Source: an uncultured Roseburia sp.
GTDB taxonomy: Bacteria; Bacillota; Clostridia; Lachnospirales; Lachnospiraceae
DNA length: 64,000 bases
Direction of reading: 5' to 3'
Assembly (NCBI GenBank): GCA_947567625.1
Contig: CANONN010000002.1
Span: forward strand, 38,765-102,764
Shown: in pieces, positions 49,813-56,084 of the stretch
Layout of the letters: each line of letters begins with the position of its first letter
How positions within the stretch are numbered: the first letter of the stretch is position 1
Made by a program: the position numbers and the translations under genes
The notes under the pieces: generated by a model
Told to the model about the DNA's origin: nothing
What the model saw: only the letters and a program-made list of their open reading frames with translations
Database searches by the model: none

Positions 49813-49850
49813 AAATCGAGAGGGGAAGATGGTTCTTCCCCTCTCGATTT
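49813..49850. terminator. Strong bidirectional terminator between the beta-helix gene and glf
   Basis: AAATCGAGAGGGGAAGA (49813-49829) and its exact complement (49834-49850) form a 17-base stem with A/T-rich ends. It overlaps the glf stop codon. Upstream, the 177-base gap holds further small hairpins (AATCAC/GTGATT, AAGTTGC/GCAACTT) and no gene. Confidence 0.85.
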
Positions 49851-50943
49851 ACAGACTGCTCACCAGCTGTAAGGCCGCTTCTATGACTTTATCCATATCA
49901 TAATATTTGTAATTGCCAAGTCTTCCGCCAAATATGACGCGGCTCTCTTTTTCCGCCAGATTGCGGTATCCCTCAAACAGTTCATTGTTTTTATCATTGT
50001 TGACCGGATAGTAAGGCTCATCGCCCTTTCGCCATTCACTGGAATACTCCCTTGATATGATCGTAAACGGCTGCCTGCCAAATTCAAAATGCTTATGCTC
50101 GATGATGCGCGTATAGGGCACTTCCCGCTCGGTATAGTTGACCACGGCATTGCCCTGATAATTTTCCATCTCCAAACGCTCTGTCTCAAAGCGCACAGAG
50201 CGGTACTCCAATACTCCGAGTTTATAGTCATAGTACTCGTCAATCATACCGGTGTAGATCACCCGGTCTGCCACCTCGCCGTTCTTCTCCACAAATGCGC
50301 GGTAGGTAACGCCCAGTCGGACCTCGATTCCCTCCAGCATTTTTTCGATAATGCGCGTATAACCGCCGACGGGTATTCCCTGATAGCGGTCATTAAAGTA
50401 ATTGTTGTCATAGATAAACCGCAGCGGCAGTCTTTTGATGATAAAGGCCGGCAGCTCCCTGCAGTCTCTGCCCCACTGCTTCTCGGTATAGCCCTTGATC
50501 AATTTTTGGTAAACATCTGTGCCCACGAGCGACAGGGCCTGCTCTTCGAGGTTTTGCGGCTCGCGGATACCGAGATCGGCGATCTGCGCGGCGATGATCT
50601 CCTGCGCTTCCCCGGGCGTGGAGATTCCCCACATCTTGCTGAACGTATTCATATTAAACGGCAGATTATACAGCTCGTCCCGATATTTTGCAATCGGTGA
50701 ATTGACATAGTGGTTAAACTCCGCAAACTGATTGATATAATCCCACACCTGCCGGTTGGAAGTGTGGAAGATATGCGCGCCGTATTTGTGCACGCGAATC
50801 CCGTCCACATCCTCACAATAGATGTTGCCGCCGATGTGCTCACGCTTATCGATCACCAGACACTTTTTGCCTCTTTTTTTCATCTCATGCGCGAACACCG
50901 CGCCGAATAAGCCGCTCCCCACTACCAGATAATCGTATTTCAC
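49849..50943 (-). CDS. glf: UDP-galactopyranose mutase
   Basis: This 364-residue FAD enzyme has the N-terminal dinucleotide motif YLVVGSGLFGAVFAHEM, followed by VIDKREHIGGNIYCED, KYGAHIFHTSNRQVWDYINQ, and GYTEKQWGRDCRELP. The FAD tail near the C-terminus is ESRVIFGGRLGNYKYYDMDK. These are the standard Glf landmarks. It converts UDP-Galp to UDP-Galf, so the cell can make galactofuranose-containing glycans. Translation probably starts at a GTG (50941-50943) nine bases after GAGAGGAG. It stands alone, convergent with the beta-helix gene, with no obvious galactofuranosyltransferase identified beyond the generic GT2 enzymes. Confidence 0.95.
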   Translation of the reverse strand: MKYDYLVVGSGLFGAVFAHEMKKRGKKCLVIDKREHIGGNIYCEDVDGIRVHKYGAHIFHTSNRQVWDYINQFAEFNHYVNSPIAKYRDELYNLPFNMNTFSKMWGISTPGEAQEIIAAQIADLGIREPQNLEEQALSLVGTDVYQKLIKGYTEKQWGRDCRELPAFIIKRLPLRFIYDNNYFNDRYQGIPVGGYTRIIEKMLEGIEVRLGVTYRAFVEKNGEVADRVIYTGMIDEYYDYKLGVLEYRSVRFETERLEMENYQGNAVVNYTEREVPYTRIIEHKHFEFGRQPFTIISREYSSEWRKGDEPYYPVNNDKNNELFEGYRNLAEKESRVIFGGRLGNYKYYDMDKVIEAALQLVSSL

Positions 50944-51033
50944 TGTTTTTTACTCCTCTCACCAAGAATTTCTGCACTCTAATTTTTCATAGATACATTA
51001 ATATAATTAAGAAATAAAATAATTGCATTTAAA

Positions 51034-51333
51034 TCAACTGAAAATCTTTGTAATATCCTGATATTGATTCACTACTCGGTAAATTTCGACGGTCTCTTTC
51101 TGAACCTTATATAGCACAATATAATCATTCCATACTACCTATTTGTAATCCGTCTTAAACCTCACACGTTTGGACAAATTTGCGCCTACCTAAGGAAATT
51201 GCTGTATATATTCAAATTGCCTGTAAATCACCTGCACGGTTTCTAATGCTTTATCGGCATTATCCTCTGCGATAAACGCTTTCATCGTTTTTATGTCTTC
51301 AGCCACTACTGGATTCATTCACAATTCCATCAT
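51034..51333 (-). pseudogene. Broken RelE/ParE-type toxin gene (two in-frame amber codons)
   Basis: The minus-strand frame after the antitoxin reads PVVAEDIKTMKAFIAEDN, ALETVQVIYRQFEYIQQFP, then TAG (51190-51192). It continues VGANLSKRVRFKTDYK, TAG (51139-51141), and then VVWNDYIVLYKVQKETVEIY, with RVVNQYQDITKIFS before the true stop at 51034. Order and spacing match a RelE/ParE-superfamily mRNA-interferase or gyrase toxin of about 95-100 residues: an N-terminal helix pair, the KRVRF-type basic strand and the YRVVxxxQD C-terminal strand. A further TGA separates the first two ATG codons from the probable start at 51318. With two internal stops the toxin should be inactive. Confidence 0.75.
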
Positions 51334-51337
51334 ATAC

Positions 51338-51585
51338 TTACTCCCCAACCTCAGACTTTAACTCATCCATCGTCAGCCAACCTTTTCCGCCATCAACAGC
51401 TTCTTCTGCCTCATGCAGTTTCTCCAGCAGCCTTTTTTCCGCTTTCTCACGCTCATAATCTTCTATATCCATTACCACGAATCTACCCCTGCCATTTTTA
51501 GTCAAGAACACTGGCTCCCCAACCTGACAGTTTTTCAAGACCTCATTATAATTCTTAAATCTGATACCGGTAATATATTAGCCAT
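51338..51585 (-). pseudogene. Frameshifted Phd/YefM-type antitoxin gene
   Basis: With an AGGTGG site upstream, translation would start at 51585 as MANILPVSDLR and then hit a stop within six codons. Inserting a single base in the AAGAATT run restores the frame exactly: NYNEV then LKNCQVGEPVFLTKNG, RGRFVVMDIEDYEREK and the acidic C-terminus to 51338. That full product (about 83 residues) is a classic Phd/YefM antitoxin. A one-base deletion therefore disrupts the gene. The residual open frame has only a TTG near 51538. Either the operon is dead or this is an assembly error in an A run; the toxin stops favour true decay. Confidence 0.75.
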
Positions 51586-51729
51586 AAATTTACCACCTCT
51601 TTCCAATCAAACAATCGCATTTCTTTTTATCATTATAATTGAAAATGCTGCAACAATCAACGAAATACTATATATCCCAACAGGAACCCTCTGCAACGGG
51701 AAACGCCCTTTCCTCCGGCAACACACCCC

Positions 51730-52263
51730 TTATGATAAGCTGCACTCCAACTGGCAGTCAAACGGCTCTTGCCTGACATGACCTTCGTGATATACTTCCG
51801 CCTCCACACACCCCATTTTTTTGTAAAAAGCCTGGCTCTCGACGGCAGAATGGGCGGATATATATAACTTACGCGCTCCATTCTCCTTTGCCCACCGTTT
51901 CGCCTCCAGAAACAGTGCGGCGCCGATGCCGTTCCCGCGCATATCTTCGGACACATGGATACTCGAGAGGTCGAGATACTTCTGCTCACCGCCAAATAGC
52001 CCGGGTTCTACCGAGGCAAAGCCCTTTAAGTTCCCGCCGCAAAAAGCGGCAAATACAACCCCGCCGGACGAAGCCGTATTTCGCAAACAGGAAATCAGCA
52101 CCTGATAATCGGCCTCTGTCCAGTCGTCAAGAAACGGCGCATCTTTGATCGTCCATGCACCGTTTTCCTTTCTCCAGCATTTGGTCACGTTTTGGCGGCG
52201 GATAAAATCGTGAAACAATGTTCTGTCGATCTCATCCGCATGCAAAATTCTGTATTGTATCAT
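51730..52263 (-). CDS. GNAT-family N-acetyltransferase
   Basis: This 177-residue single-domain acetyltransferase has motif A (HVSEDMRGNGIGAALFLEAK, with R-x-x-G-x-G/A for acetyl-CoA) near residue 108, preceded by the beta4 strand YLDLSSIHVS. C-terminal QAFYKKMGCVEAEVYHEGHV is typical of motif B in small GNATs. It is soluble and stands alone. The ATG at 52263 is preceded by GGAGG eight bases upstream. Substrate unknown; many relatives acetylate small amines, antibiotics or protein N-termini. It sits between the broken toxin-antitoxin pair and the frameshifted plus-strand gene, inside a region of mixed composition. Confidence 0.85.
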   Translation of the reverse strand: MIQYRILHADEIDRTLFHDFIRRQNVTKCWRKENGAWTIKDAPFLDDWTEADYQVLISCLRNTASSGGVVFAAFCGGNLKGFASVEPGLFGGEQKYLDLSSIHVSEDMRGNGIGAALFLEAKRWAKENGARKLYISAHSAVESQAFYKKMGCVEAEVYHEGHVRQEPFDCQLECSLS

Positions 52264-52480
52264 TTATTTCATCCTCCATGATCTGTTCTACCGGTTGGTC
52301 AAATATGACGCACGAACTTCTGTTGTCAGCCAACCATGTCTTCTGCCATGCTTTTCCTTTGGCAGATCCTATCGTTTCACCGCTTCTAAGTATAGCAAAA
52401 CAGATGGTCAAAAACAATAAGCCACCGTGTTACATTTCAAAACCCGTCGGAAGGTTCCGTGCGGGACAAAGTAAATTTGA

Positions 52481-52508
52481 TTGCAATTTTTGATGAAACA
52501 GTTATAAT
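52481..52508 (+). promoter_or_regulatory. Promoter of the frameshifted membrane-protein gene
   Basis: TTGCAA (52481-52486) and perfect TATAAT (52503-52508) have 16-base spacing, about 50 bases before a GGGGAGG site and ATG at 52557. The rest of the 293-base gap (52264-52556) shows no convincing gene. Confidence 0.6.
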
Positions 52509-52556
52509 ATTTTTATAGATTATCTTTTTTCTATGCTGTTACGGGGAGGTACAGTT

Positions 52557-53536
52557 ATGTTAGCAGAAGATAAAAAAGCATCTTATCTATTTTTGCGACG
52601 TTGATCGTCGTCATTCTTTCATCCTGTGTCAAAAACCCAATCATACAAATACTGTTTATTGCCATTTTTATCGCGGCATGCTGGCTGATCTTCAGTAATT
52701 TAAATTCAAAAATGAAATGGAAAAAAATCTTGATTGTCATTTGCTGCGTTACGGAAACGCTTATTATCATAGCGTCCATTGTCAGCATTGGTTCTATCAG
52801 CAGTTTTTTCCGCCATATGAAAAATTTTTTTGTCTATGAGCAGACAAGCGCCAACGGGACCTTAACCGATTCCATCGCGCCCGCGTCCGCTTCCAGTGAT
52901 TACAGCCAACAACTGGCAGAACTAAAAGAAAGCATCGAGGGGCTTGACAATCGTGTATCGGGTATCGATCAAAGTATTGTGGAAATGGATGCCAGCCTCG
53001 ACGTTTTTACAAACGATCTGAAACATCTCTATATCAATGACAGCATAGATGATGTGGAAGTAGAAGAAATCCTGCAAAAAATAAATGAAAAATATGACAA
53101 TTACACCGGTGACGTTTTTTTAAGTTTAAGAACAGACCCCTACGCATTTGAACTATTTTACAAAATGTATCTGTCAAAGGAGCCCTATTATTATTGTAAT
53201 TTGATAAGTGCCTTTGAAAAATACGGCGTAGATTTTGATAAACTTGATATTGATGTGCATGATTTAATCACATGGGACATCGAAGTGTTGTTTATGCATT
53301 ACAACATTAAAAACTATATTGACAACGAGCTCGATTTCCATTCTGAAGATGTAATCGATGATATCAGCTTCTATTATAAAGACTTCAAAATTAATATGCA
53401 GCGGTACAGTGATACGTTTGACTACGATTCATGGAACCTGCATTACGAAGGTTACACGGCAAAAGAGCTTGATGAAAAAATGGAAACGCGCATTATGAAT
53501 TACTATAAAAAGTTCATCATAAATTTTCAGGATTGA
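52557..53536 (+). pseudogene. Membrane/coiled-coil protein gene with a one-base frameshift at its 5' end
   Basis: A strong ribosome site (GGGGAGG) and ATG at 52557 open a frame that stops after 15 codons. One extra A in the run of six at 52572-52577 would join it (MLAEDKKSILSIFAT) to the long frame that continues LIVVILSSCVKNP from 52602 to 53536, giving about 326 residues. That product has two or three membrane segments (to about residue 80), a coiled-coil-like stretch (QQLAELKESIEGLDNRVSGI) and an acidic, Tyr-rich C-terminal domain. No family is recognised. The homopolymer makes sequencing error, slippage or real mutation all possible. It lies upstream of the SecB-like operon but with its own promoter. 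Confidence 0.6.
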
Positions 53537-53688
53537 AGCTGCATGGTTTATATCTTTCGTTCTCCAATTTTTAATGTAATCATATCATCAATCCACCTGC
53601 TTTGCCTCTCCGGTATATTGGATATGATTAAGCAGCAAACACTCCAACACTTTAGATGGTCAAACATGTCAAACAAACGTTCTGCCTT

Positions 53689-53717
53689 TTATTATATCGT
53701 TGATATACAATTATAAT
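53689..53717 (+). promoter_or_regulatory. Putative promoter of the SecB-like operon
   Basis: A perfect TATAAT (53712-53717) has TTATTA (53689-53694) 17 bases upstream, 26 bases before the probable ATG at 53743. Confidence 0.4.
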
Positions 53718-53742
53718 ACTACAAATGATGGGAGTTTATCTT

Positions 53743-54198
53743 ATGAGAAATGAATTATTTGTATTTCCTGATTATTTTTCAGAAAATTCGGTTAAATTAA
53801 TAATATCAAACGGGAAACCTGATTCCCTACACATATATAGAGTCGGCAAATATGGAAAAGACAAAACAACTGCTTTTCTGAATTATTATGATGAAATACA
53901 ACAGGGTTTAAAAACTGTTAGAAATCCAGAAAAGTATTTAGAAAAATGTAAGAATAATATGGTTCAACTTTCTGTATCATGTTATTATGATATCGATGAT
54001 CTTACATACTATTTTGAAGTTACTTTAAAAGACACTTATCCTGAGCGGATATTATTAGAGGGGATATCTAACCCTTGTCATGGATTAATTCAAAAAACGT
54101 CAGAAAGAAAAACAGAAACTAAAAATTCTCATGTTGACTGGTGGCTTTATAAAAATGCAACTCCATGGATTGATTTTAATGAGGTGAATAATGAATGA
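53743..54198 (+). CDS. First gene of the SecB-like operon, unknown function
   Basis: This 151-residue soluble protein, strongly AT-rich in codon use, has no recognised family. Visible landmarks are SLHIYRVGKYGKDKTTAFLN near residue 30, MVQLSVSCYYDIDDLTYYFE near 75, and SHVDWWLYKNATPWIDFNEV at the end. The start at 53743 follows GGGAG by eight bases; an ATG six codons earlier has no site. Its last codons overlap the next gene by eight bases (54191-54198), a sign of translational coupling. Because the operon ends in a SecB-like chaperone, and such chaperones are known to control toxin-antitoxin pairs, this could be a toxin, an antitoxin or a chaperone client. The sequence alone does not decide. 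Confidence 0.6.
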   Translation: MRNELFVFPDYFSENSVKLIISNGKPDSLHIYRVGKYGKDKTTAFLNYYDEIQQGLKTVRNPEKYLEKCKNNMVQLSVSCYYDIDDLTYYFEVTLKDTYPERILLEGISNPCHGLIQKTSERKTETKNSHVDWWLYKNATPWIDFNEVNNE

Positions 54199-54781
54199 AC
54201 TATATTTTAGTAACGTAATTCAAATTGGAAATTTATATTTAGAAAAAGTTCTTAATAAATTTGAAGATGAAAATATCATATTTATATGTAAAGATTTAAA
54301 TGGTAATCGTTATTTATGTATTTGTTATGAATTCCGTTTATCCTTGAAATGGATTATATGTAAAATTACACCTGAAACTTTAATAAAACTAATCGCAAAT
54401 AGAATAGATATAAATACCGTCTTTGAACTTGAACAGAATCATTGGATTCAAATTCTATACAAAAATGGGAATGAAATATCAAGAATATTTACTTGTGATA
54501 ATTCGGTTGAAAATATTCTCCCAAAGCGTGGAGTGTTCCTAAAAACGGATCAGGAAATCTCAAAATATTTACGATTTATTTGTTTTAACTTTACAAAAAC
54601 ATCTTCCTATACATGTGAGCGATTTATCAAATATCCATCACAAAGATTGACAACCGGTTTAAATACTACTAATAATTGTTCCTGTTCAAATTCCAATTAT
54701 ATCATATCTTATGATTTAAACAATGCTCGTAATAAGAATGAAAAAGATTTATCCTTTATAAATTTATTTGATGCTGCATAA
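54191..54781 (+). CDS. Second gene of the SecB-like operon, unknown function
   Basis: This 196-residue soluble protein is rich in Ile, Asn and Lys. The N-terminal half alternates short hydrophobic strands (IQIGNLYLEKVLNKFED, IIFICKDLNGNRYLCICY, LKWIICKITPETLIKLI), suggesting a compact alpha/beta domain. The C-terminus is Asn/Ser-rich and probably flexible. No motif, signal or membrane segment is recognised. It is coupled to the upstream gene by overlap, with GAGGTG just before its ATG, and followed by the SecB-like gene nine bases later. A flexible, aggregation-prone C-terminus next to a SecB-like chaperone is what is seen in chaperone-dependent antitoxins, but this comparison is inference. 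Confidence 0.6.
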   Translation: MNELYFSNVIQIGNLYLEKVLNKFEDENIIFICKDLNGNRYLCICYEFRLSLKWIICKITPETLIKLIANRIDINTVFELEQNHWIQILYKNGNEISRIFTCDNSVENILPKRGVFLKTDQEISKYLRFICFNFTKTSSYTCERFIKYPSQRLTTGLNTTNNCSCSNSNYIISYDLNNARNKNEKDLSFINLFDAA

Positions 54782-54790
54782 GGAGTAAAA

Positions 54791-55171
54791 ATGAAAGAAA
54801 GTTTTTTCCAATTTTCGGATCCTCAACTCGTAAAACTAAATTTTCAAATAAATGAGGATTTTGATGAACAACTTTTTACCGGTTTCTCTATAGAAAGCGA
54901 AGTACATATTGGCATTATTGAACAAGGTAAAGAAGCATTAGTTAGTTTGCAATTAATGATTGGTAATTCTTCAGCAAACTATCCTTTTCAAATTTTAATA
55001 GTTATGTCAGGAAACTTTACATGTGATAAAGAGGATTATTTTGATAAATTACTCAACACAAATGCCCCTGCCTTGCTATTATCTTATACAAGGCCCATTA
55101 TTTCGCTAATTACTGCCCAGGCAGGATACCCCTCGTTTCATTTACCGTTTATGAATTTCACCGAATCATAG
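54791..55171 (+). CDS. SecB-like chaperone-domain protein
   Basis: This is a 126-residue protein. The C-terminal part LNTNAPALLLSYTRPIISLI followed by TAQAGYPSFHLPFMNF closely follows the SecB signature, in which an Asn-Ala-Pro-x-x-Leu/Phe strand, a helix with Arg, and the Gly-x-x-x-x-x-Leu-Pro-x-x-Asn-Phe end form the core. The N-terminal half has the expected four-strand pattern (VKLNFQINEDFDEQLFTGF, HIGIIEQGKEALVSLQLMIG). Classic SecB belongs to Proteobacteria, so a SecB-like gene in a Firmicute, in an AT-rich island and ending a three-gene operon, points to an accessory role such as toxin-antitoxin-chaperone systems rather than general export. AAGGAG lies just before the ATG. The motif match is by eye. 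Confidence 0.8.
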   Translation: MKESFFQFSDPQLVKLNFQINEDFDEQLFTGFSIESEVHIGIIEQGKEALVSLQLMIGNSSANYPFQILIVMSGNFTCDKEDYFDKLLNTNAPALLLSYTRPIISLITAQAGYPSFHLPFMNFTES

Positions 55172-55181
55172 ACCATTTATC

Positions 55182-55230
55182 TATAGGGATAACTTTTCTT
55201 CATATAAAATAGCAGAAAACTATCCCTATA
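55182..55230 (+). terminator. Hairpin closing the SecB-like operon
   Basis: TATAGGGATA (55182-55191) pairs perfectly with TATCCCTATA (55221-55230), and the stem can extend inward with CTTTTCT/AGAAAAC. It starts 11 bases past the stop codon. No T run follows, so it may be a 3' stabiliser rather than a classic terminator. Confidence 0.45.
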
Positions 55231-55268
55231 TGATCGTCTTACCACTCAACGTCTCCATAGCAAATCAG

Positions 55269-56084
55269 TCACGGACGATACCGCCCTCTTAAATTTTGAA
55301 ATAGTATTTTGAGCAGCTCGCCGTTTCCCCGCAGGAAGCTTATTTTCGTGGGTGTTTTTCCCTTTTTTGGATATGCTCTCGTTACAGGTATCTCACAAGC
55401 TTTCAGTCCAATCTGTGTCGCCCTGACCGACAAATATGCCAACAATTCATATGTCATAAATACATCGCGCAAGGGCTGTACACGTTCGTCCCTCAGATAT
55501 CTTGCAGAATACGCTCTGTATGCGTTTGTCGTATCCGTGAATCTCTGTCCGGCAGTCAGGGAAATAATCGGTGCATGAAGCAGTCTTACCGACAAGGTCC
55601 GTATGAGAGGCGTATGAATTGCTTTTCCCCCCTTTACAAATCTCGAACCCTGCACCAGATCATAGCCTTCCTCCAATTTGCTGATAAATTGGGGAACATC
55701 TTCAATGCTATCCTTATTATTGCCGTCAATCGTGATCAATCCGCGATATCCACGTCTTAACGCCCACCAGATTCCCATGCGGAGCTGCGCACCCTGCTTT
55801 CCGATATCTTGCTTTACAAGAAGCGTATTCACCCGCAGCCTGCGAAGTTCCGATTCTTCTGTGCAGCCGTCTGTCGACCCGCCGTCGCAGACCACAATAT
55901 CTGCATAATCGGCGATATCATATTTGCAGGCGCGCGCCAATTCTTTCCGTATTCTCTCTCCTTCGTTGATGATCGGAATCAAAACCACATACTCTTTTGA
56001 TTTTTCCCGATACTCGTTGCACACAAATTTCGGTACGCCTTCCTGCCGCTCAAAAACCATAGTACCATCATCCCCCTCTTCCAT
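55269..56084 (-). CDS. Family 2 glycosyltransferase
   Basis: This GT-A enzyme is up to 271 residues. YVVLIPIINEGERIRKELAR near residue 31 begins the catalytic domain, VVCDGGSTDGCTEESE follows, and YRGLITIDGNNKDSIEDVP near 115 contributes the acidic site (DGN in place of the usual DxD). LVQGSRFVKGGKAIHTPLI follows in the DPM1/GT2 style. There is no membrane segment. It begins four bases after the TIM-barrel gene's stop. The ATG at 56084 has no good ribosome site, and the one at 56060 (MVFERQEG), after GAGGGGG, may be the real start. It is the last gene of the operon running from 63920. The altered metal motif is worth noting; the product is probably a lipid-linked or nucleotide-derived glycan intermediate. 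Confidence 0.82.
   Translation of the reverse strand: MEEGDDGTMVFERQEGVPKFVCNEYREKSKEYVVLIPIINEGERIRKELARACKYDIADYADIVVCDGGSTDGCTEESELRRLRVNTLLVKQDIGKQGAQLRMGIWWALRRGYRGLITIDGNNKDSIEDVPQFISKLEEGYDLVQGSRFVKGGKAIHTPLIRTLSVRLLHAPIISLTAGQRFTDTTNAYRAYSARYLRDERVQPLRDVFMTYELLAYLSVRATQIGLKACEIPVTRAYPKKGKTPTKISFLRGNGELLKILFQNLRGRYRP

What the first reader, a model, noticed from the sequence alone, without database searches (positions are those of the whole stretch)
53743..55230. AT-rich three-gene operon ending in a SecB-like chaperone in a Firmicute
Seen: three tightly packed genes (8-base overlap, then 9-base gap) with own promoter and 3' hairpin; the third has the SecB NAP...LPxxNF signature; the other two match no family I know. 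Known: SecB is mainly proteobacterial, and stand-alone SecB-like proteins act as chaperones of toxin-antitoxin systems (TAC systems such as Rv1955-Rv1957). Inference: this may be an undescribed chaperone-controlled toxin-antitoxin or defence module. It sits beside another, decayed toxin-antitoxin pair, which is common in such islands.
Basis: partly seen in the sequence, partly recalled or inferred. Interest (0 to 1): 0.75.

Follow-up and report, generated by a model that had tools for sequence, protein, structure and literature searches.

The report
Three-gene chaperone-guarded toxin-antitoxin defence operon
A small AT-rich operon in a gut-type Clostridia genome looks like a new kind of toxin-antitoxin (suicide-type) phage-defence switch in which a SecB-like chaperone keeps an unstable antitoxin alive; the same three genes recur together in dozens of related genomes and in some phage contigs.

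Summary
The three genes are real and densely packed. Gene 3 is a SecB-family chaperone (just over the Pfam cut-off; family profile matches E. coli SecB over its length, E 9e-11; best PADLOC match CmdC). Genes 1 and 2 are distant relatives of PD-T4-10 A and B, a two-gene anti-phage toxin-antitoxin. The trio is conserved: 37 of 49 gene-1 clusters have gene 2 and a SecB hit, and the three proteins diverge together (Mantel r 0.84-0.91, n=32). B proteins of seven two-gene loci are about 400-430 aa; here gene 2 keeps only the DUF6575 domain plus a variable, predicted-disordered tail ending in Ala-Ala in 28 of 37 clusters (background 1 of 196 ORFs), like the ClpX degron of CmdA. Two natural deletions remove tail, degron and chaperone sequence together and spare gene 1. 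Gene 1's confident model weakly resembles ADP-ribosyltransferase folds, with invariant Arg, Ser and His.

Best reading: a toxin-antitoxin-chaperone system built on a PD-T4-10-like core (gene 1 toxin, gene 2 antitoxin, gene 3 chaperone). Open conflict: published PD-T4-10 tests call the DUF6575 partner the toxin. No function was tested here.

The parts
53743..54198 (+). gene 1, 151 aa: PD-T4-10_A-related protein, ADP-ribosyltransferase-like fold suggested; candidate toxin
   Evidence: alternative in-frame ATG at 53725
54191..54781 (+). gene 2, 196 aa: DUF6575-like N-terminal domain plus tail; candidate antitoxin
54191..54523 (+). DUF6575-like folded domain (about residues 1-111)
   Evidence: (mean pLDDT 90 or more over residues 1-80, about 75 over 81-110)
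54569..54778 (+). variable tail of gene 2 (about residues 127-196; a predicted helix runs to 135, and residues 151-196 have pLDDT below 50); candidate chaperone-addiction region
54770..54778 (+). codons for the C-terminal Asp-Ala-Ala, candidate ClpX degron
   Evidence: the genome's own tmRNA tag also ends in AA
54791..55171 (+). gene 3, 126 aa: SecB-family chaperone of the CmdC/TAC type
55182..55230 (+). hairpin downstream of gene 3, possible transcript end
   Evidence: no T-run

Best explanation
It is a toxin-antitoxin-chaperone (TAC) operon whose toxin-antitoxin core is a distant relative of the two-gene defence system PD-T4-10. Gene 1 is the toxin, an ADP-ribosyltransferase-like enzyme with invariant Arg33, Ser79 and His130 (inferred from fold and conservation). 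Gene 2 is the antitoxin. Its DUF6575 domain holds gene 1, and its tail is a chaperone-addiction region ending in a ClpX degron (tail, predicted disorder and Ala-Ala end are shown; binding and degradation are inferred). Gene 3, the only SecB match found in the genome assembly, binds the tail and shields it. When phage proteins or unfolded substrates draw the chaperone away, ClpXP destroys the antitoxin and gene 1 stops growth, aborting the infection (inferred from CmdTAC, HigBAC and the M. tuberculosis TAC). My confidence that it is a TAC-type module at all is about 0.85; that gene 1 rather than gene 2 is the toxin, about 0.7; that its role is phage defence, about 0.7.
For: Conserved trio: 60 loci with gene 1 form 49 clusters at 95% identity; 48 have gene 2 and 37 have gene 2 plus a SecB hit. 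Co-divergence of the three proteins: Mantel r 0.91, 0.84, 0.86, n=32, p 1e-4, the floor of 9,999 permutations. SecB identity: E. coli SecB, E 9e-11, profile 4-132; 14 of 15 A6 members hit Pfam SecB at E up to 0.1; PD-T4-9_C = CmdC, E 2.6e-9. PD-T4-10 kinship: hhalign gene 1 against two A proteins E 9.6e-14, gene 2 against two B proteins E 1.9e-10, N-terminal part only; 31 of 39 gene-2 proteins hit PADLOC PD-T4-10_B at E up to 0.1, best 2e-13. Tail: 18% mean pairwise identity against 30% for the domain; pLDDT below 50 over 151-196. Degron: gene 2 ends in AA in 28 of 37, gene 1 and SecB in 0 of 37 each, background 1 of 196 ORFs. [quoted passage not shown] Natural deletions: relative to L044, L055 lacks about 560 bp and L047 about 276 bp; each removes gene 2's tail and degron plus SecB sequence and leaves gene 1 open, as expected if the chaperone is needed only because of the tail. 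Gene 1: model pLDDT 92.9; R33, S79 and H130 invariant in 39 of 39 three-gene proteins and in 13 of 13 of a mixed set of six three-gene and seven two-gene proteins. Mobility: AT-rich; trio near phage tail or helicase genes in IMG/VR contigs.
Against: PMC9519451 (passages): in PD-T4-10 the DUF6575 protein (B) was toxic alone, A neutralised it, and A could not be deleted, which is the opposite polarity. Gene 1's fold assignment rests on weak Foldseek matches (PDB best E 0.15, none at or below 0.001; BFVD best 2.4e-3, to an uncharacterised protein), and the classical catalytic Glu is not at the expected place. The window's gene 2 is below the DUF6575 cut-off, and neither gene 1 nor gene 2 of the window matches PADLOC alone; only 3 of 39 gene-1 proteins hit PD-T4-10_A. 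Tails are not richer in aromatic or basic residues, as SecB-binding motifs would suggest. Nine of the 37 gene 2s do not end in AA (three of these are broken genes; L021 ends in Leu-Ala). Six systems have a third gene that the SecB model does not recognise. Nothing was tested in cells.
Confidence: 0.62

Rival explanations
1. Same module with PD-T4-10 polarity: gene 2 (DUF6575) is the toxin, gene 1 its antitoxin, and the chaperone and degron set the lifetime of the toxin.
For: PD-T4-10B was toxic alone, was neutralised by A, and A could not be deleted (PMC9519451, passages). Genes 1 and 2 are related to A and B by profile.
Against: In the TACs whose tails are described in the passages I read (CmdTAC; the M. 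tuberculosis HigBA1 TAC and three others), the chaperone-dependent tail is on the antitoxin, and for CmdA and HigA1 the degron too. Gene 2's folded domain has only Cys, Pro, Trp and Phe as invariant or nearly invariant residues, while gene 1 has invariant Arg, Ser and His. The C-terminal two thirds of two-gene B proteins, where the toxicity could lie, is absent here. The same paper's CmdTAC spot assay had to be corrected (PMC11445053, whole text), so polarity from such assays can mislead; that correction does not concern PD-T4-10.
Confidence: 0.22
2. The trio is a phage- or element-borne accessory unit that is not a toxin-antitoxin, for example a modifying enzyme (gene 1) with a scaffold protein and a dedicated folding chaperone.
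For: No toxicity was tested here; some copies sit in phage contigs; an ART-like enzyme could act on one specific target.
Against: Kinship with an experimentally shown TA pair; the Ala-Ala end on gene 2 only; deletions that spare gene 1 and gene 2's domain but remove tail and chaperone sequence.
Confidence: 0.1
3. An ordinary solitary SecB with unrelated neighbours.
For: Firmicutes do carry solitary SecB-like genes (PMC4257090, passages).
Against: Gene 1 and gene 2 relatives accompany it in 37 of 49 clusters, and the three diverge together.
Confidence: 0.02

Closest known systems
PD-T4-10 (two-gene TA defence system, E. coli; PMC9519451, passages)
   Same: Gene 1 is related to component A and gene 2's first domain to component B (DUF6575); same order; adjacent or overlapping genes.
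   Different: In the seven two-gene loci examined (L007, L008, L106-L108, L110, L111) the DUF6575 protein is 399-432 aa with a further C-terminal region, and no SecB was found in the stretch held. Here that region is replaced by a disordered degron tail, and a SecB gene follows. E. coli PD-T4-10 itself was not among the loci fetched.
CmdTAC / PD-T4-9 (PMC11618068, passages)
   Same: Three-gene order; SecB-like third gene with CmdC as best PADLOC match; second protein with an unstructured C-terminus ending in Ala-Ala.
   Different: Gene 1 shows no detectable relation to CmdT-like proteins (hhalign probability 0.2% against a two-sequence profile); gene 2 has a DUF6575-like domain, whereas CmdA is described with a pair of N-terminal helices and a long unstructured C-terminal domain.
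HigBA, MqsRA and HicAB TAC systems, including Rv1955-Rv1957 (PMC5105189, PMC8165232, passages)
   Same: Chaperone-addiction extension that is variable in length and sequence; C-terminal ClpX degron (Val-Ala in HigA1).
   Different: No relation of genes 1 and 2 to those toxin and antitoxin families was seen in Pfam or NCBIfam scans.
Other SecB trios in Clostridia and phages: GNAT type (L003, L012, L102) and CmdT type (L004, L015, L084, L085); types of L012, L102, L084 and L085 assigned by eye
   Same: Same layout, related SecB; the middle protein ends in AA in six of these seven and in SA in L102.
   Different: Different first and second proteins. The Ala-Ala end is not universal: of five trios with an HTH-type middle protein by eye (L086, L088, L089, L098, L099), one ends in AA. 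L090 was left out because its middle gene was not resolved.

Membership tests
TAC (toxin-antitoxin-chaperone) | three-gene operon with a SecB-family third gene | tested here: met
   SecB just over the Pfam cut-off; trio in 37 of 49 clusters
TAC (toxin-antitoxin-chaperone) | antitoxin with a variable, unstructured C-terminal extension absent from two-gene homologues | tested here: met
   tail in place of the two-gene C-terminal region; pLDDT below 50 over 151-196; 18% against 30% identity
TAC (toxin-antitoxin-chaperone) | ClpX-type C-terminal degron on the antitoxin | tested here: met
   sequence only: ends DAA; AA in 28 of 37 clusters against 1 of 196 background ORFs; degradation untested
TAC (toxin-antitoxin-chaperone) | extension carries SecB-binding stretches rich in aromatic and basic residues | tested here: inconclusive
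   no bulk enrichment in 38 tails; the window tail has one such stretch by eye (about residues 125-153)
TAC (toxin-antitoxin-chaperone) | toxin neutralised only with antitoxin plus chaperone | not testable with these tools
   needs expression tests
PD-T4-10 | component A homologue | tested here: met
   by profile: hhalign E 9.6e-14; PADLOC hits at E up to 0.1 for 3 of 39 members, none for the window protein alone
PD-T4-10 | component B with DUF6575 and a long C-terminal region, two genes without chaperone | tested here: not met
   DUF6575 part only; a chaperone gene is present; so it is built on a related core but is not filed as PD-T4-10
PD-T4-10 | B toxic, A antitoxin | not testable with these tools
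   needs expression tests
CmdTAC (PD-T4-9) | CmdT-type ADP-ribosyltransferase toxin | tested here: not met
   no PD-T4-9_A hit for gene 1; hhalign against two CmdT-like proteins E 0.37
CmdTAC (PD-T4-9) | CmdC-type SecB chaperone | tested here: met
   PADLOC PD-T4-9_C E 2.6e-9 over residues 1-124
SecB family (PF02556) | match over the curated cut-off | tested here: met
   26.7 bits, cut-off 26
ADP-ribosyltransferase superfamily (gene 1) | ART fold | tested here: inconclusive
   confident model; 11 of the 50 PDB rows listed (of 129 matches) are ART-fold toxins or RES toxins, several chains of few proteins, all at E 0.45-3.0; 5 of the 50 BFVD rows listed are named as ART-superfamily enzymes; fold class of these names recalled
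ADP-ribosyltransferase superfamily (gene 1) | R-S-E or H-Y-E catalytic residues | tested here: inconclusive
   Arg33 and Ser79 invariant and on the first and second predicted strands; His130-x-Asp132 where E-x-E would be expected; the comparison with the ART motif is by eye and recall

The most novel reading that the evidence does not exclude
An ART-like protein (A) and the DUF6575 domain form one constant defence core onto which different sensing cassettes are plugged at the C-terminus of the DUF6575 protein: at least two different C-terminal regions in two-gene systems, and a chaperone-addiction tail with its SecB in this three-gene family. The chaperone cassette would thus be a detachable phage sensor, lost as a unit in L055 and L047, and the published toxin and antitoxin roles in PD-T4-10 would need re-examination.
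Probability: 0.35. Interest if true: 0.8.

Novelty: new variant of a known kind. Interest (0 to 1): 0.64.

Why it matters
It would put another toxin-antitoxin core under SecB control, besides the HigBA, HicAB, MqsRA and CmdTA types; bear on why SecB-like genes occur in monoderm bacteria (PMC4257090, passages, says their sporadic presence suggests functions to be discovered); and show chaperone addiction standing in the place of another C-terminal region on the same protein family. It also makes a direct conflict testable: which of the two PD-T4-10-type partners is the toxin.

Tried and rejected
Solitary-SecB and housekeeping readings were rejected on synteny. A CmdT relationship of gene 1 was tested and not found (two-sequence profile, so a weak test). 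A single-sequence scan of genome contigs with SecB found no relative. tblastn of window gene 2 in plasmids and of window gene 1 in plasmids found nothing; gene 2 in phages found only tape-measure proteins at E 0.3 or worse; window gene 1 was not searched in phages. L007's A protein found one plasmid hit and no phage hit, L007's B six plasmid hits and no phage hit. Viral scans with A1 and A10 found no relative. Fold search of gene 2 gave nothing significant. Aromatic/basic enrichment of the tail: not seen. Promoter: at chance. L005 (same-genus SecB match at E 4e-4) was judged spurious because it overlaps, on the opposite strand, larger ORFs. L026-L034 were dropped: each match has in-frame stops and my profiles found no ORF there. 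L109 (M. abscessus plasmid) has a short 134-aa DUF6575 ORF with no gene-1 or SecB hit and was left out of the seven two-gene loci. In L107 and L108 gene 1 is assigned by position and alignment, since my gene-1 profile missed it; it missed gene 2 in L110 and L111, which PADLOC recognises. The structure alignments A7 and A8 hold 39 sequences each; near-duplicates, broken genes and the unnamed-genome loci were left out. In the cluster counts, broken systems and L070 (contig ends after gene 1) were kept; L076 (no gene-1 ORF found) and L017 (no ORF hit) were not counted.
Full report
OBSERVATION. The window carries three + strand ORFs, 53743-54198 (151 aa), 54191-54781 (196 aa) and 54791-55171 (126 aa), with an 8-base overlap and a 9-base gap. 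The unit is 28.3% GC against 49.2% for the window outside 51000-55300. It lies among what read as polysaccharide-type genes: a UDP-galactopyranose-mutase-like ORF at 49849-50943 and a glycosyltransferase-like ORF at 55269-56084 (names by eye; not searched). A 3' hairpin is significant (z -4.6) but lacks a T-run. Promoter-like sites are at chance level.

GENE 3 IS SECB. Pfam SecB 26.7 bits against a cut-off of 26. A profile of 15 related proteins matches E. coli SecB over its length (1qyn, E 9e-11, profile 4-132 to chain 7-135); 14 of the 15 hit Pfam SecB singly at E up to 0.1. The best PADLOC match is PD-T4-9_C, the CmdC chaperone (E 2.6e-9). The genome assembly (93% complete) has no other SecB match at E 10 or better. 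The fold of gene 3 itself was not modelled.

GENES 1 AND 2 ARE A PD-T4-10-LIKE PAIR. A search of 398 genomes of the phylum for DUF6575 (PF20215) at E 0.001 gave 2 hits; the window's own genome is not among them. In both, the DUF6575 gene (about 400 aa) is preceded by a small gene that aligns with window gene 1. PADLOC names the pair of L007 PD-T4-10_A (5.2e-6) and PD-T4-10_B (1.6e-14). Profile comparisons against these loci alone agree: gene-1 profile against the two A proteins E 9.6e-14; gene-2 profile against the two B proteins E 1.9e-10, confined to the first 130 positions of B; these are pairwise E-values, not database-calibrated. Over the family, at E up to 0.1, 31 of 39 gene-2 proteins hit PD-T4-10_B and 22 of 39 hit DUF6575, but only 3 of 39 gene-1 proteins hit PD-T4-10_A (best 8e-6). 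The window's own genes 1 and 2 do not hit PADLOC.

THE TRIO IS CONSERVED. Gene-1 profiles found matches in 16 of 397 genomes of the family at E 0.01, of which 7 (the window's own included) are strong at E below 1e-4; 42 loci in genome contigs; and 7 loci in viral contigs. SecB-based scanning gave 9 viral loci, of which L010, L011 and L016 have the trio; the same three contigs came back in the gene-1 scan (L077-L079). In all, 60 loci with gene 1 fall into 49 clusters at 95% identity; 48 have gene 2 and 37 have gene 2 plus a SecB hit. The profiles used for this count were built from the window and L010, L011, L016, L020-L025 among others, which therefore match by construction. Among the 42 loci, by my reading: 31 have a SecB hit (two of them shortened, L047 and L049); L055 keeps only a SecB remnant fused to gene 2; six (L060-L063, L065, L066) have a small third ORF that the SecB profile does not recognise (profile comparison with SecB: probability 73%, E 3e-5, 90 columns; suggestive only); L053 and L071 have no evident third gene; L070 runs off its contig; L076 has no gene-1 ORF and only a weak SecB match (E 0.006). 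By record title most are Lachnospiraceae or other Clostridia, largely metagenome assemblies; one (L067) is titled Verrucomicrobia. In 32 complete systems the distance matrices of the three proteins correlate at r 0.91 (1-2), 0.84 (1-3) and 0.86 (2-3), p 1e-4, the floor of 9,999 permutations.

GENE 2: DOMAIN SWAP AND DEGRON. The seven two-gene loci examined (L007, L008, L106, L107, L108, L110, L111) have DUF6575 proteins of 399-432 aa and no SecB in the stretch held. L007 and L008 share a C-terminal region matching PADLOC PDC-M63B; L110 and L111 (Pantoea, Rahnella) have a visibly different one (reading). An eighth hit, L109, has only a 134-aa DUF6575 ORF and no partner found. In the three-gene family the N-terminal domain (median 111 aa to the LP motif) is followed by 32-189 residues; beyond the first 15 of these the mean pairwise identity is 18%, against 30% in the domain. 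AlphaFold gives residues 151-196 of the window protein pLDDT below 50. Gene 2 ends in Ala-Ala in 28 of 37 clusters; gene 1 and SecB in 0 of 37 each; 1 of 196 background ORFs of 150 aa or more does. The 28 are related, so they are not independent events. Of the nine others, L036, L047 and L049 are broken (in L036 a following ORF ends in DAA), L021 ends in Leu-Ala, and L056, L058, L064, L067 and L073 have other ends. The genome's own tmRNA tag ends in AA (AEDNLAFAA). [quoted passage not shown] PMC8165232 (passages) gives Val-Ala for HigA1. PMC5105189 (passages) describes the chaperone-addiction extension as variable in length and composition and transferable. Tails are not richer in aromatic or basic residues than the domain, which is against a simple reading of SecB-binding motifs.

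NATURAL DELETIONS. Against L044 (97.5% identical over the shared first part), L055 lacks about 560 bp, from the gene-2 tail to near the end of SecB; L047 lacks about 276 bp relative to L044 (87% identical), from the tail through the SecB start. Gene 1 and the DUF6575 domain stay open in both. PMC5105189 (passages) reports that HigA1 without its last 42 residues suppresses toxicity without the chaperone, albeit less efficiently. These are single contigs, n=2, and assembly error is possible.

GENE 1. The model is confident (pLDDT 92.9, pTM 0.86). PDB Foldseek has no significant hit (best E 0.15); 11 of the 50 rows listed are cholera-type, EcPltA, LT-IIb or RES toxins of ADP-ribosyltransferase fold at E 0.45-3.0, several being chains of the same protein, and most other rows are unrelated proteins (fold class recalled). 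In BFVD the best hit is an uncharacterised phage protein (E 2.4e-3); five of the 50 rows listed are named RNA 2'-phosphotransferase, PARP or ADP-ribosyl transferase, alongside named rows that are none of these. Arg33, Ser79 and His130, on the first, second and fifth predicted strands, are invariant in 39 of 39 and in 13 of 13 of a mixed set of six three-gene and seven two-gene proteins. Asp132 is present in 38 of 39 three-gene proteins (Asn in L016), and Thr stands there in six of the seven two-gene proteins (reading). I take an ART-like enzyme as likely but unproven.

POLARITY CONFLICT. In PMC9519451 (passages) PD-T4-10B was toxic alone, A neutralised it, and A could not be deleted. Position, degron, tail and conservation point the other way here. 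I prefer gene 1 as toxin but hold the alternative at 0.22. PMC11445053 (whole text) shows that the same paper's CmdTAC spot assay had to be corrected; it does not mention PD-T4-10.

MOBILITY. Of eight neighbours of the trio scanned in three IMG/VR contigs, three match named phage families (tail protein in L079, 1e-12; tail fibre in L078, 4e-13; DNA helicase in L077, 4.8e-133), four match families of unknown function and one matches none. A different SecB trio sits between endolysin and integrase of Lactobacillus phage LJ. Of 60 other genomes searched in the genus, 4 carry the neighbouring glycosyltransferase-like gene at E 1e-60; in the stretches held, their DNA match to the window stops at 55290-55342 and there is no match to the operon.

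LITERATURE. In the held library DUF6575 occurs in 1 paper and PD-T4-10 in 1, the same one. SecB with toxin-antitoxin and Lachnospiraceae: 0. Two further searches (7 papers, 6 listed; 59 papers, 15 listed) showed nothing on this combination in titles or abstract beginnings; two of the listed papers were searched for SecB and held nothing on it. A 2024 Cell Host & Microbe paper on TAC phage sensing is cited in PMC11980606 (passages) but is not held, so a mention there cannot be excluded.

Noticed in passing
window 52601-53536 (+): 311-aa protein with N-terminal hydrophobic segments, 37% GC, just upstream of the trio; only weak PspB/XhlA/SLATT-type matches. May belong to the same island.
   Followed up: no
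window 51190-51538 (-): Phd/YefM antitoxin gene followed by a 41-aa ORF with no family match, probably a truncated toxin; a GNAT acetyltransferase lies at 51730-52263 (-).
   Followed up: partly
L003 484-1893; L012 3011-4414; L102: GNAT acetyltransferase (Pfam for L003, by eye for the others) + short protein ending in AA or SA + SecB: another SecB trio, including one in the window's own genus (L003).
   Followed up: partly
L006 3608-5222 (Lactobacillus phage LJ): orf57-orf58-SecB between endolysin and integrase; orf58 ends in AAA. Looks like a phage-carried TAC of unknown toxin family.
   Followed up: no
L009 2983-4423 (Lactobacillus gasseri plasmid): Three-gene unit (216 aa, 116 aa, SecB) near annotated MazF- and RelB-type toxin-antitoxin genes.
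   Followed up: no
L060-L063, L065, L066: Same genes 1 and 2, but the third gene is a small protein that the SecB profile does not recognise, and gene 2 lacks the Ala-Ala end: possible unrecognised chaperone type.
   Followed up: partly
L007, L008, L110, L111: DUF6575 proteins of two-gene systems carry different C-terminal regions (PDC-M63B-like in L007 and L008, another in L110 and L111), as if modules are exchanged behind a constant domain.
   Followed up: partly
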